Shown: positions 49,302 through 63,200 of the stretch, piece by piece | Layout: every line of letters begins with the position of its first letter | How positions within the stretch are numbered: position 1 is the first letter of the stretch | DNA from: Hyalella azteca | Lineage: Eukaryota; Arthropoda; Malacostraca; Amphipoda; Hyalellidae | Direction of reading: 5' to 3' | Assembly (NCBI RefSeq): GCF_000764305.2 | Contig: NW_025933395.1 | Coordinates: 18,368-82,367 of the forward strand | DNA: 64,000 bases | Notes under the pieces: model-generated | Database searches by the model: none | Seen by the model: the letters and a program-made list of their open reading frames with translations, nothing else | Told to the model about the DNA's origin: nothing | Translations under genes and position numbers: made by a program

Positions 49302-49412
49302 TTACACAGCCATTTCCATGCCTATCTTAGGATAAGGATTGTAGTCAAGGACTTTGATGTCATCGATAGAGAACTTTTCGATGTCCATTACGTCAGGGTT
49401 GAGGACGAGAGT
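49302..49412 (-). CDS. TYMS: Thymidylate synthase, C-terminal part, cut off from the rest
   Basis: Minus strand, 36 codons and stop: TLVLNPDVMDIEKF, SIDDIKVLDYNPYPKIGMEM, AV. This is the last stretch of thymidylate synthase, ending in the invariant MAV whose terminal Val closes over the folate site. In an intact gene it would follow the RSPRPFP at 60242 directly. Here 10.8 kb of bacterial-type DNA separates them. No TS codon seems to be missing. Confidence 0.9.
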   Translation of the reverse strand, partial: TLVLNPDVMDIEKFSIDDIKVLDYNPYPKIGMEMAV

Positions 49413-49425
49413 CCTCAACCCTGAC
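49392..49425. repeat. 15-bp inverted repeat at the insertion junction
   Basis: GTCAGGGTTGAGGAC, loop GAGA, GTCCTCAACCCTGAC (plus strand). The 49392-49406 arm is thymidylate synthase coding sequence. The other arm is its inverted copy, wedged between host and bacterial DNA. The paralogous bacterial frame diverges just here. Confidence 0.85.
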
Positions 49426-50347
49426 CTTCTACCGCAGCTGGTATGGCTATTTCGTCCTCTTCAAGGGCTACTTCTGGGGCAGGAACTAGCAGGATATCCT
49501 GACTACTGGTAGCCTGGATGAGTAGCGCAGTGTTTTGCTGGATTTCTTGGGCATAGGAGTCGACCTTCTTTTCAAACTTTTCAAGGAAGCTATGCGTATA
49601 CTGGCTGAGTTTATCCATCATATCCATCACCTCTTTGATCTGCAACACCTGGCTAGCATGGGGAATTTTAGCTTGGGCTACGCCTAGGGCAATGGATTTC
49701 GCCATATGGAGACATACATGGTCTTGTGGTTTTTCTAGCAGGGTTAGTCCTTCTTTTAAAAAGAGTTGTTGCCAATAGTTGTCTCCATTTTTGATATCCT
49801 GTTCTAAGGCAGCTACCAGGAGAGGATGGTTTAGCATGGCTTCGGTTAAGGTTCTTTCCAGTTTTTCAGCCATTGCTTCCTGAATGTTGTCCAGCAAGAG
49901 CTTATCGGCCAAAAATTGTCCAGATAGCGTCAAACATTCTTTGAAGGCCCCTTTGCCCAGTTCTTTGGTGGCAAGTTGGTCTTTTTCCGAAATGGGAACC
50001 AGCCCTTTTGCTAAATCTTTGGAGGTCTTATTTATAGCATCTGCACCATTTTTTAGAGAATCCCATCCCATGGAGGCTAAAGATACCGTTACGTTGATGG
50101 CTTTTTGTGTAGCCCAGGTGGCACATATAGCGTAACTGTTTTTACCGGTTTGAGTAACCTGAACGTTAGGGTCGGTTGGTGCAAAGTGGCCATTGGGGTT
50201 TTCAGCTAGCACTACTTCATCTTGTGGTAGATCTTGGTTTTGGATAGAATAGATGGTTTGTTTGGCAGTGGCACTGGCTATTCCATGATGGCTAGTTACT
50301 AAGAGCCAGGTTAGTAGGGTTAAGAAGAGATGCTTAGGGAGGGACAT
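49415..50347 (-). CDS. Secreted-type bacterial protein, mosaic copy of parts of the giant protein
   Basis: The ATG at 50347 (MSLPKHLFLTLLTWLLVTS) gives a signal peptide; the frame's extension upstream to 50404 starts at TTG. The rest is pieced from the giant protein in this order: [22 protein letters not shown], then about 210 residues close to its residues 2330-2566 (WATQKAINVTVSLASMGW ... [20 protein letters not shown]). About 310 residues in all. It terminates in the junction filler, so its natural C-terminus is lost. Function unknown; the module is probably helical. Confidence 0.7.
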   Translation of the reverse strand: MSLPKHLFLTLLTWLLVTSHHGIASATAKQTIYSIQNQDLPQDEVVLAENPNGHFAPTDPNVQVTQTGKNSYAICATWATQKAINVTVSLASMGWDSLKNGADAINKTSKDLAKGLVPISEKDQLATKELGKGAFKECLTLSGQFLADKLLLDNIQEAMAEKLERTLTEAMLNHPLLVAALEQDIKNGDNYWQQLFLKEGLTLLEKPQDHVCLHMAKSIALGVAQAKIPHASQVLQIKEVMDMMDKLSQYTHSFLEKFEKKVDSYAQEIQQNTALLIQATSSQDILLVPAPEVALEEDEIAIPAAVEGQG

Positions 50348-59900: not shown

Positions 59901-60241
59901 CTAGTTTCATGTCCAAGGAATGTATCAGGGGTAAAGGAATCGCTGCTCGGGTGGTTATTTTCAAAGTAGATAGGTAGCTGCAGGGTATGACCCGCTGCGT
60001 CTAATAGATGAGCCTCATAGCGATTGGCACAGGGGTTGAACTGCAGAAATCTATAAACTCCACCCTGATCCAAGGGTAGCAGCTGGGTTGTAGAAGGGGG
60101 CGGATCTGCAAGGATAGCTGCTGAGGGAGGGGGTAAGGCTAGGGGGGTGGCTTTAGATCCTAACATGGATAAGTGGCTAGGGGGGCCACAGGAGGTGATC
60201 AATTCTGTGATCAGTAAGATATGGGCTAGAAACCGATTACA
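50999..60241 (-). CDS. Giant bacterial effector: lipoprotein leader, SecA-like ATPase, TPR, toxin-type C-terminus; 5' end fused to thymidylate synthase
   Basis: About 3,080 codons without a stop or intron; numbering here counts from the ATG at 60319 inside the host exon. 27-45: truncated lipoprotein signal ([16 protein letters not shown]), start Met missing. 150-370: three similar repeats around YIG/YIAP. 363-445: Cys-rich, possibly metal-binding. 446-547: Arg/Glu coiled coil. About 1230-1830: SecA-like two-lobed ATPase with INTGEGKSL (Walker A), [10 protein letters not shown] (Walker B) and [11 protein letters not shown]. It is interrupted by four 12-residue [12 protein letters not shown] repeats (1623-1673). 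2090-2175: TPR-like. 2280-2308: membrane segment. 2330-2566: module shared with 49415-50347. 2726-2831: OTU-like sequence. About 3010-3106: C-terminal domain ([30 protein letters not shown]) of polymorphic-toxin type. SecA-like effectors of this size occur in intracellular bacteria; the host is unsettled. Confidence 0.85.
52140..52300 (-). repeat. Coding tandem duplication in the giant gene
   Basis: Two units of KKPSKHxSxNxKKxIKAIEN followed by QDLPQDE, nearly identical in DNA. Confidence 0.75.
55307..55450 (-). repeat. 36-bp coding repeat, four units, inside the SecA-like domain
   Basis: Units give [12 protein letters not shown]. They sit directly after the [10 protein letters not shown] motif, between the two ATPase lobes, where SecA has no such insertion. 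Confidence 0.8.
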
Positions 60242-63200
60242 GGGAAAAGGGCGTGGAGAGCGCAGCAGTTGTTCTTGCAGGGCCTCTATGTGGTTCAAGT
60301 AGACGTGCGCGTCACCCATCGTGTGTAGGAACTCGCCAGGCTAGACATAGGGGATACCAAAGCTCAATAATAAAAGTTCTTATGAAGTAATAAAGCAGTG
60401 ATAAGAGACGTATATATATTGAGTGATGGAATTTGGGTCGACATAAGTAAAAAATCAAGTAAATAGGATACTTCTCGAAAATCAAAATTGTTAGGAATTA
60501 TTACAAAATAACAAAAATAATTAAGAATCACAGCACCGAAAATCACTCTGAAAACAGTCTCAAGGTTCTAACAAATCCAGTAGCTTGTAGGTTGATGGCT
60601 AGGTTCCTATCCTTAATGATGAGGGCCTCAGCTATCGCGAGTCGGTCGACGTCGGGACATCTCATGACGACGCTGGTAAATAATAAATAAATAATAGCGG
60701 TTTCAGCGTTATTAGGCCGTAGGCCTGTCGCCGATTCTTAACATTGCAGAACATTCACCGCATTTTGCGGTCTCGAACTCGCAACTCACTGCTACAATTC
60801 TGCTGTGCTTAACCGCCCGGCCTCCTCGCCGATTCTGACCAGAAACTGGCGCACAGAGCTGGGATCGAACCCGCGCCTCTCTGCGCCAATCTTGGTACTC
60901 TGAACTTTAACCACTGGGCCACCCTGCCCACTGGTGCACTCTTCCAGCACCGTGCGAGTGATGGTCTCCTTGTGGGCTTCCATCAGGTGGTTCCTTGGCC
61001 CACCAGACTGAAGATGGCTCGTGAGACGTCGGCTTAATGTCGTAGTTGTTAGCTCGATGTAGTCCATATTGGGGAGAAGTCTACAACCTTCTCTATTGCA
61101 AGAAAGCTTATAGACTACATTGGTCTCTTGGAAAACTCCCGGGAAGCACGTATATTCTCATCCAACGTTATCGGCTCCATCAATACCTAAGAAAATTCTC
61201 TTCGATCTCCTTCAACTTTGCACTTCCGAATCACCTTTCCGGACCCCGGACAATAAAATTTAACGACAAACCAACGGCGTAGCCATGGGCAGTCCCCTTG
61301 GTCTTACTTTTGCTGAATACTATATGTGCGAAATTGAAAATCGAGTACTTTCAGATGAACTGAATAAGCCCGAATTGTACTGCAGGTATGTCGATGAGAT
61401 ATTCGTTGTCGTTCGAGATGAAGAACAACTTATGAATCTACGATTGGCCTTTGAAATGAATTCTGACTTGAAGTTTACTTACGAACTCGGACAAAATCGC
61501 ACCTTACCTCTTTTAGATATACTCGTCCAAGCTAAAAATAACTCTTTCGTCACAAAAGTATACCGACTGTCGGGAGAGTCCTGAACGCCGATAGCGAGTG
61601 CCCCGAGCACTATAAAAGAAGCACAATACGTGTTCTCATCCAACGAGCCTTCAAAACCTGCTCGTCTGAAAATGACTTGAATACGGAGCTGAGAAATTGC
61701 AAAAGAATCTTGGACAATAACGGATTTACCAATAGAACCATCGAAACAGAAATTTCTAAACTTCGAAAGTACCAAAACAGACTCAACCATGAACCAGAGA
61801 CTGACGCAAACGTTACAACCATCTACTATGAGAACCAAATGACCAACGGTTATAAAGCAGATGAACGGATCCTTCATTCTATCGTTCACAACAACATCGT
61901 GAACGAAACTAATAATAAAATTAAACTACTGATTTATTACAAAAATAAAAAAAAAGAAAATACAGAATCTTGTAATGAACAATAACCTCTGCAAAAAAAC
62001 GGAAGTTTTCAAAGAGACCAATGTAGTCTATAAATTTTCTTGCAATAGAGAAGGTTGTAGACTTCTCCCCAATATGGACTACATCGGGCTCACAACTACG
62101 ACATTAAGCCGACGTCTCACGTGCCACCTTCAGTCTGGTGGACCAAAGAACCACCTGATGGAAGCCCACAAGGAGACCATCACTCGAAAAATTGCGAATA
62201 AAACAAATTCTCTGGTCTTCAATGAAACCTGCTTGAAAGAAGAAATTCTGCCAACCTATACTAATATATATATATATATGGAAAGAGAATAGTTTAACTT
62301 AGAACGCGTATTTTGGTGTGACAAAGTGTGTGTTGATTATTACCTAAATGTTTATAGTAGGAAAACTAACTCCTCAGGTTAGTTAACTAAAATAAATAAG
62401 ATTTTAGATAAAAGTCCCAGCGTAAAAACACATAAAATACCTAATACATGAAGCAATTACAATGAATATTCGTATTCATAAAGTGAAATAAAATAGAGAA
62501 AGTTAAGTCACCATAGAAAATGGATTAGTACCTTAAGGCCGGTGACCTGAGCAATCATGCAGGTGAGCAGAGCATAGCTGGCGATGTTAAATGGCACGCC
62601 GAGGCTCATGTCAGCAGATCGCTGGTACAGCTGACAAGACAACTCGCCATTGGCAACGTAAAACTGACACAAGCAATGGCAGGGAGGCAGTGCCATTTCA
62701 GGGATGTCAGCTGGGTTCCAAGCAGACAAAATCAAACGGCGGTCTGTGGGATTTGTCTTGATTCTTTCAATGATCTGAAAAATAGAATTATTGATCATGT
62801 CAATAGTCACTTCAAACAGTGAAAAATGAAGGAAGCAAAATTCATCCGACAGACTTTTCTTTCCGCGAATACACGAGTTACATTCCTCAGTCGGATGGCA
62901 ATATAATGAAGTAAGCAAATTATAGTACACTTCCTCTTCCTTTCACAAGTCAGTATTTCAATTGTTGGTAATTAAAATTGAGCAGTGATCTGGAAGGATA
63001 AACAGACTAGGTTATTTTTGAATTTACTCAAATCTAGCATTAGTCTCAGCATAATTACAAAATTTCAGTTTGATTTCACGCTGCACTTAATTGTCAACCT
63101 GCAGAATCTGGTCGATGCCCTGGCCGGTGTAGTCCGCGTGCATATTCGTGTATTTGGCTCCAGAATATCGCCACTGGAAACCGTAAACAGGACCCAAGTC

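What the first reader, a model, noticed from the sequence alone, without database searches (positions are those of the whole stretch)
49302..60340. Thymidylate synthase split by a 10.8-kb bacterial DNA segment
The exon reads [20 protein letters not shown]...RSPRPFP up to 60242 and resumes with TLVLNPDVMDIEKF at 49412; together these are contiguous in the thymidylate synthase family. Between them lies intronless, less AT-rich, operon-like bacterial sequence. The flanking host exons have introns, a SINE and a Penelope element, so this is nuclear DNA, not symbiont sequence placed by chance. The exact fit on both sides argues against a simple misjoin, although the assembly does contain an adapter artefact elsewhere. 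It would be a horizontal transfer caught inside an essential gene.
Basis: partly seen in the sequence, partly recalled or inferred. Interest (0 to 1): 0.95.

Follow-up and report, generated by a model that had tools for sequence, protein, structure and literature searches.

The report
Bacterial gene inserted in amphipod gene
In the genome assembly of a freshwater amphipod, a spare copy of the thymidylate synthase gene is cut in two by a 10.8-kb piece of DNA from a Cardinium-like symbiont, joined without loss of a single host base; an unbroken copy of the gene sits elsewhere, so this looks like a recent, probably harmless capture of bacterial DNA during repair of a DNA break.

Summary
The window is Hyalella azteca contig C846. 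A thymidylate synthase (TS) exon ends at 60242, bacterial DNA fills 49413-60241, and the exon resumes at 49412. An unbroken TS locus in the same assembly (C3500) reads straight across the site, with no host base lost or duplicated. Both flanks match C3500 in order, so they are one locus. The insert is chiefly one uninterrupted 3080-codon gene for a giant SecA-helicase, effector-like protein of the Cardinium/Amoebophilus clade (Bacteroidota), plus short broken or repeated frames. One junction probably formed at TTTCCC microhomology; the other carries a 13-15-nt inverted copy of the host exon. This fits alternative end joining.

The broken copy is a diverged duplicate (dS about 0.13, three changes at invariant residues), not the only copy of an essential gene, and there is one giant gene, not an operon. 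The open frame implies a recent insertion. No second close copy and no bacterial 16S turned up in the held assembly (both searches score only the best candidates). No reads were available, and the contig contains a mate-pair adapter artefact. Real integration: about 0.85. New member of a known kind: bacterium-to-animal gene transfer.

The parts
49413..60241 (-). The insert: 10,829 bp of bacterial DNA (left boundary may shift by about 6-7 bp of microhomology; the last 13 bp at the right are fold-back filler)
   Evidence: Alignment to the unbroken TS locus C3500
51002..60241 (-). Uninterrupted 3080-codon bacterial frame: N-terminal lipoprotein-type signal, SecA-DEAD helicase region, C-terminus without known family; in frame with the TS exon (whole frame with stop 50999-60319)
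   Evidence: start aligned to Amoebophilaceae locus L022; lipobox read by eye
55469..56779 (-). SecA_DEAD domain region
   Evidence: PF07517, 117.8 bits, cut-off 24.6
56915..57040 (-). RPE1-type palindromic-element peptide inside the frame
   Evidence: TIGR01045, 45.3 bits, cut-off 30; a similar peptide in L022
50853..50996 (-). Short 47-codon frame directly after the giant gene; a likely continuation lies in another frame (broken). Position suggests an immunity-type gene, unproven
   Evidence: three-frame translation
49415..50404 (-). Frame holding a partial diverged repeat of the giant gene's later part (98% over 300 nt, 93% over 175 nt) and running to the junction
49392..49425 (-). Right junction: perfect 15-bp inverted repeat with 4-nt loop; an inverted copy of the host exon's next bases
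   Evidence: (I3)
60242..60340 (-). TS exon, 5' part, up to the left junction
49303..49412 (-). TS exon, 3' part with stop codon, after the right junction
62532..62774 (-). TS exon
63099..63243 (-). TS exon
63513..63651 (-). TS exon; any further 5' exons lie beyond the contig end (window 64000 = contig end)
60402..62292 (.).
   Evidence: alignment jump 62293 to 60401 against C3500 15200 to 15197
43182..63874 (-). Host segment homologous in order to C3500 12678-21538 (75-93% identity per piece), carrying both flanks of the insert

Best explanation
A double-strand break in the last exon of a duplicated, probably already dispensable TS copy in the germ line of Hyalella azteca (or its ancestor) was repaired by alternative (microhomology, polymerase-theta-like) end joining that captured a 10.8-kb fragment of a Cardinium/Amoebophilus-clade symbiont. 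The left end probably joined at shared TTTCCC, just inside the bacterial gene's start. The right end snapped back on the host strand, copied 13-15 nt and then joined. The captured gene is a nearly complete giant SecA-helicase, effector-like gene. In the animal it is most likely an inert, very recent passenger; the in-frame fusion to the TS exon is most likely accidental. Shown: sequence, empty site, duplicate, donor clade, junction anatomy. Inferred: germ-line origin, repair pathway, recency, inertness.
For: Unbroken site in the same assembly with zero loss and zero duplication. Both flanks match the same C3500 locus in order, and both carry this copy's own differences (25 of 624 sites before, 6 of 110 after). 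Donor clade: the insert groups with P0002, Cardinium sp. TP and a mosquito gene (Armigeres) at 99/98 support; 10 of 22 GTDB loci come from records titled Amoebophilaceae, Cardinium, Cytophagales or Bacteroidetes, and these include the nine best; the L022 Amoebophilaceae MAG matches 90% over 60 aa and has a similar gene start MQHFPCRRLIAHILL. Microhomology: L022 reads CACTTTCCCTG, the junction reads CCTTTTCCCTG, the host reads CCTTTTCCC|ACT. Fold-back: 15-bp arms; 0 of 20 base-shuffled windows gave arms of 15 or more with a loop up to 10. In the held assembly only this locus (frame and its partial repeat) matches the gene at 90% or more; the other listed matches are at 26-43%. All 6 listed rRNA hits are eukaryotic 18S. 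The 3080-codon frame would survive neutral drift of 0.3% with probability 0.025 at an indel rate of 0.1 per substitution, so the insertion is recent unless selected.
Against: No reads were seen; one assembly only. It contains an untrimmed mate-pair adapter about 21 kb away. The fold-back is not unique in the window: two other inverted repeats that are not AT-rich, of 19 and 16 bp with short loops, occur at 1642 and 20721. An open bacterial frame is also what a living symbiont would give. Absence of symbiont contigs may only mean that they were screened out, and the searches for them were partial: the 16S search scored 5 of 4071 first-look candidates, the gene search only its best candidates and without the last 80 residues, and the DNA search was not scored. 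The microhomology rests on a relative, not on the donor.
Confidence: 0.8

Rival explanations
1. Assembly artefact: symbiont DNA was wrongly joined into a host contig at two chimeric junctions.
For: Mate-pair adapter left in the contig; fold-back palindrome at one junction; open bacterial frame; no independent near-identical copy of the gene in the protein collection, of which only the candidates sharing most words were scored.
Against: Two independent misjoins would have to abut exactly at one host base pair without loss or overlap. Both flanks come from the same diverged locus. None of the adapters tested and no N lies at the junctions. Microhomology of about 6 bp is too short for an assembler overlap (inference).
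Confidence: 0.14
2. The transferred gene has been taken over by the host and is expressed as a TS-effector fusion or through the TS promoter.
For: In-frame continuity of TS exon and a 3080-codon frame; GenBank gene model P0001 joins them; H. azteca keeps other giant SecA-like frames on host contigs, with dN/dS of 0.38-0.59 in four pairwise comparisons.
Against: Frame agreement has a 1 in 3 chance. The gene model is a prediction and drops parts of the frame. No expression data here. The other giant genes form a separate clade.
Confidence: 0.05
3. The insert is a copy of the host's own older giant SecA family moved into TS.
For: H. azteca carries such genes.
Against: Identity to them is only 36-38% in the DEAD pieces and 26-43% over all listed pieces; the insert groups with Cardinium-clade proteins instead.
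Confidence: 0.01

Closest known systems
Bacterium-to-animal lateral gene transfer from endosymbionts (Wolbachia inserts in arthropod and nematode genomes; PMC3798261, passages read)
   Same: Fragment of symbiont DNA joined to host nuclear sequence
   Different: Donor is the Cardinium/Amoebophilus clade (Bacteroidota); empty site and both junctions resolved; single nearly complete giant gene with an open frame
Giant secA genes shared by insects, Wolbachia wBol1-b and Amoebophilus (PMC3639933, passages read)
   Same: Same kind of giant SecA-domain gene found in symbionts and arthropods; Aasi_1610 is a relative
   Different: That paper reads the transfers as eukaryote to bacterium; here a bacterial-clade copy is caught inside an animal gene with its junctions
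Amoebophilus effectors with shared N-termini and variable C-termini, including SecA-like helicase-related domains (PMC3482391, passages read)
   Same: Lipoprotein-type N-terminus (read by eye), SecA-like region
   Different: No Pfam family above cut-off at the C-terminus; OTU only below cut-off (16.1 against 23.3 bits)
Numts and other DNA captured at double-strand breaks (general knowledge; end joining of numts mentioned in PMC3798261, passage)
   Same: Zero-loss capture with microhomology and templated filler
   Different: Source is a bacterium, not an organelle

Membership tests
Integrated bacterial DNA in an animal nuclear genome | Host sequence contiguous on both sides, with an unoccupied counterpart | tested here: met
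   C3500 15373|15374 against window 60242/49412
Integrated bacterial DNA in an animal nuclear genome | Bacterial origin by closest relatives and phylogeny | tested here: met
   one animal gene (Armigeres) falls in the same clade
Integrated bacterial DNA in an animal nuclear genome | Junctions confirmed by reads, PCR or second assembly | not testable with these tools
   no reads or second assembly held
Alternative end joining scar | Microhomology at a junction | tested here: inconclusive
   TTTCCC shared by host and by a relative of the donor; donor itself unknown
Alternative end joining scar | Templated filler from the flank | tested here: met
   13-15-nt inverted copy of the host exon at 49392-49425; similar palindromes occur elsewhere in the window
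Cardinium/Amoebophilus-type giant SecA effector gene | SecA-like DEAD and helicase domains | tested here: met
Cardinium/Amoebophilus-type giant SecA effector gene | Lipoprotein-type N-terminus shared with clade members | tested here: inconclusive
   N-terminus aligns to that of one Amoebophilaceae locus, L022; lipobox judged by eye, no signal-peptide program; first codons lie outside the insert
Cardinium/Amoebophilus-type giant SecA effector gene | Known toxin or effector domain at the C-terminus | tested here: not met
   no family above cut-off; best PDB match E 0.26
Functional thymidylate synthase gene | Complete uninterrupted gene with conserved residues | tested here: not met
   interrupted; W, L and G replaced at columns invariant in 119 of 119 others; 5' exons would lie beyond the contig end

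The most novel reading that the evidence does not exclude
A very recent, possibly still segregating, nuclear capture of a nearly complete Cardinium-clade effector-like gene, with both repair scars readable and an unbroken sister locus as control. It may be the first case from the Cardinium clade with resolved junctions, and it shows how the giant SecA genes now found in mosquitoes, rotifers and crustaceans could have entered animal genomes.
Probability: 0.3. Interest if true: 0.65.

Novelty: new member of a known kind. Interest (0 to 1): 0.5.

Why it matters
Many bacterial inserts in animal genomes are old and decayed, so that how they entered can no longer be read (general knowledge). Here the empty site, both scars, the donor clade and an undamaged frame are all available. 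This makes the entry mechanism and age testable in a standard laboratory amphipod. It also bears on how giant SecA-like genes, which recur in animal genomes, arrive there. It does not mean that the animal lost an essential gene.

Tried and rejected
Rejected: disruption of the only TS gene (unbroken locus C3500). Rejected: insert as operon (one giant frame; the rest short, repeated or broken). Rejected: insert as copy of the host's giant SecA family. Considered: Rickettsia donor because of the RPE1 hit; rejected because the Amoebophilaceae MAG L022 also carries an RPE1-like peptide and the tree puts the insert with Cardinium TP. Considered: toxin identity of the C-terminus; Pfam, NCBIfam and PDB gave nothing above cut-off. 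Considered: independent evidence for the insert in other public data; no near-identical protein was listed and 68 other than the GenBank model from this same contig (P0001). Both calls scored only the candidates sharing most words, and they cannot name the organism of most unnamed sources. Rfam gave no RNA at gathering score in the window; ARAGORN gave none. A whole-genome DNA search with the insert was answered but not scored. Literature searches; the H. azteca genome paper itself is not held, so its own survey of bacterial DNA could not be checked.

Corrections made on checking. My notebook lists four replacements at conserved TS columns. One (position 8) and six others of the 19 listed differences lie in a stretch where the gene model P0001 reads into intron sequence (seen by eye), so I count 12 exon-supported replacements, 3 of them at columns invariant in 119 of 119 others. 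The notebook's '36-38%' for other SecA matches holds for the DEAD pieces only; all listed pieces run from 26 to 43%. I lowered the novel case from 0.35 to 0.3, because a 2013 review passage tells of Bacteroidetes-derived genes in mealybugs and names the Cardinium clade among likely LGT sources, which weakens 'first from this clade'.
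Full report
What the window is. The protein search with the large frame returned the GenBank model HAZT_HAZT001008 of Hyalella azteca (P0001) at 100% identity, on a contig of 82,367 bp. The held assembly G000 (519 Mb, 4890 contigs) contains the window as C846:18368-82367, and C846 is 82,367 bp long; the window's end is the contig's end.

The observation. TS exons lie on the minus strand at 63651-63513, 63243-63099, 62774-62532, 60340-60242 and 49412-49303. 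Between the last two lies the insert.

The decisive control. A family search of the same assembly found a second TS locus on C3500, where the exons of the NCBI TS protein P0073 (325 aa, 95% identical to the spliced query over 96% of it) map. Its last exon is unbroken. Aligned to the window, C3500 up to 15373 ends at window 60242 and C3500 from 15374 begins at window 49412. Nothing is lost and nothing is duplicated. Homology in the same order continues on both sides, from window 63874 to 43182, at 75-93% identity per piece, so both flanks belong to one duplicated segment.

The broken gene is the spare. Over 244 exon-supported codons the copies differ silently in 18 and with a change of residue in 12; dN 0.021, dS 0.128 (NG86; 31 mismatches in 734 sites). 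The pairwise dN/dS of about 0.17 by NG86 (0.21 by YN00, 0.23 by ML) is below 1, so the copy was not free of constraint throughout. Three of the 12 replacements fall on columns where all 119 other aligned homologues agree (W to S, L to I, G to S), and three more (A to D, F to S, S to G) bring in a residue seen in none of the 119. As a control, P0073 against six other animal TS proteins shows 44-69 differences each, of which 0-2 fall on columns with 95% or more agreement. The window copy was therefore probably evolving under weakened constraint, although it has no stop or frameshift of its own. Any 5' exons are beyond the contig end.

What was inserted. GC is 0.488 in the giant frame. It has 3080 codons and SecA_DEAD (117.8 bits), SecA P-loop and Helicase_C domains above cut-off; SecA_PP_bind is just below (22.1 against 23.5). 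It also contains an RPE1 element peptide (45.3 bits, cut-off 30). Its start, read by eye, is a lipoprotein-type signal. After its stop come a 47-codon frame whose likely continuation lies in another frame, two 57-nt repeats, and a partial repeat of the giant gene (98% over 300 nt, 93% over 175 nt). I call the gene effector-like from its kin: PMC3482391 (passages) describes Amoebophilus effectors with shared N-termini and variable C-termini, SecA-like helicase-related domains among them. I found no recognised toxin domain.

Donor. Of 72 relatives in the first search (the 7992 candidates sharing most words were scored), the best after P0001 are unnamed, from Armigeres subalbatus, or from Amoebophilus. 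Of 22 loci from GTDB genomes, the nine best are titled Cytophagales, Cardinium, Amoebophilaceae or Bacteroidetes, at 35-53% identity over the DEAD piece; the eleventh, L022, is Amoebophilaceae too; the other twelve include a Rickettsiales bacterium, Legionella and other Legionellaceae, and other Proteobacteria, at lower scores. L022 matches 90% over 60 residues, carries an RPE1-like peptide and has a gene start MQHFPCRRLIAHILL against [12 protein letters not shown] at the junction. In a tree of 37 proteins the insert groups with P0002, Cardinium sp. TP and Armigeres (99/98) inside a clade with Amoebophilus (95/93).

Junctions. L022 reads ATGCAACACTTTCCCTGC where the window reads CGCCCTTTTCCCTGT and the host C3500 reads CGCCCTTTTCCC|ACT. 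So the donor probably shared at least TTTCCC with the host, and the break lies a few codons inside the bacterial gene. The right end carries 13-15 nt that are an inverted copy of the host exon, with a 4-nt loop. None of 20 base-shuffled windows gave arms of 15 or more with a loop up to 10, but the window itself has two other short-loop inverted repeats that are not AT-rich, of 19 and 16 bp, besides AT-rich ones and the adapter, so the palindrome alone is not proof. Together these are the marks of alternative end joining (pathway named from general knowledge).

Real or artefact. For artefact: the contig holds a full Nextera mate-pair junction adapter at 27891-27928, and no reads can be seen. 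Against: two misjoins would have to meet at one host base pair; no tested adapter and no N lies at the junctions; in the held assembly only this locus matches the gene at 90% or more (the frame itself and its partial repeat), while the other 19 of 21 listed matches are at 26-43% (best candidates only, last 80 residues not in the query); all six hits of the bacterial 16S model are eukaryotic 18S (5 of 4071 first-look candidates were scored). Contigs of a symbiont may have been removed before release, so the last points are weak. I put real integration at about 0.85, and the whole account including mechanism at 0.8.

Age. If unconstrained, the 3080-codon frame would stay open with probability 0.44-0.67 at 0.05% divergence, 0.007-0.087 at 0.3% and below 0.02 at 0.5%, over indel rates of 0.05-0.15 per substitution (a simple Poisson estimate). 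Against dS 0.128 between the TS copies, the insertion is much younger than the duplication. Selection on the gene in the host would be the alternative; nothing here shows it.

Novelty. Bacterial DNA in animal genomes is well known. A 2025 review of Cardinium says that no transfer between Cardinium and its hosts had been reported (PMC12342168, passages). Against this, a 2013 review tells of Bacteroidetes-derived genes in the mealybug genome and names the Cardinium clade among likely sources (PMC3798261, passages). PMC3639933 (passages) describes giant secA genes shared between insects, Wolbachia and Amoebophilus, with transfers read as eukaryote to bacterium. My searches of open papers pairing Hyalella with lateral or horizontal gene transfer, endosymbionts, Amoebophilus or Cardinium showed no title or abstract start that reports this insert (one search listed 12 of 138 papers). 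The one paper holding both Hyalella and Cardinium, PMC5723600, has Cardinium only in its reference list (passage). The H. azteca genome paper is not held.

Noticed in passing
G000 C886:70319-81856, C1964:23150-35278, C2531:275792-284998 and on, C2531:189279-194898 (two frames), C414:1-7512 (to the contig end) (L056-L063): H. azteca carries its own family of giant SecA-like open frames (3846, 4043 and 4005 codons in the longest) on host contigs, separate from the insert in the tree; dN/dS 0.38-0.59 in four pairwise comparisons.
   Followed up: partly
window 10919-20551, minus strand: Four consecutive, different, long open frames of piggyBac-type transposases (DDE_Tnp_1_7, 237-268 bits; the name piggyBac is recalled) on one strand.
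   Followed up: partly
window 27891-27928: Complete Nextera mate-pair junction adapter left in the assembly, inside a retroelement-like frame; a likely false join.
   Followed up: yes
P0003, Armigeres subalbatus LOC134209247: A giant SecA gene on a 465-Mb mosquito contig groups with the Cardinium-clade proteins and the insert, perhaps another transfer.
   Followed up: no
L022:382-489 and window 56915-57040: RPE1-type palindromic element peptides, an element named for Rickettsia (recalled), inside Amoebophilaceae-type proteins.
   Followed up: partly
window 1642-1684 and 20721-20756: Perfect short-loop inverted repeats of 19 and 16 bp, unexplained.
   Followed up: no
window 35074-36126: GC-rich repetitive stretch with long open frames in several readings.
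   Followed up: no
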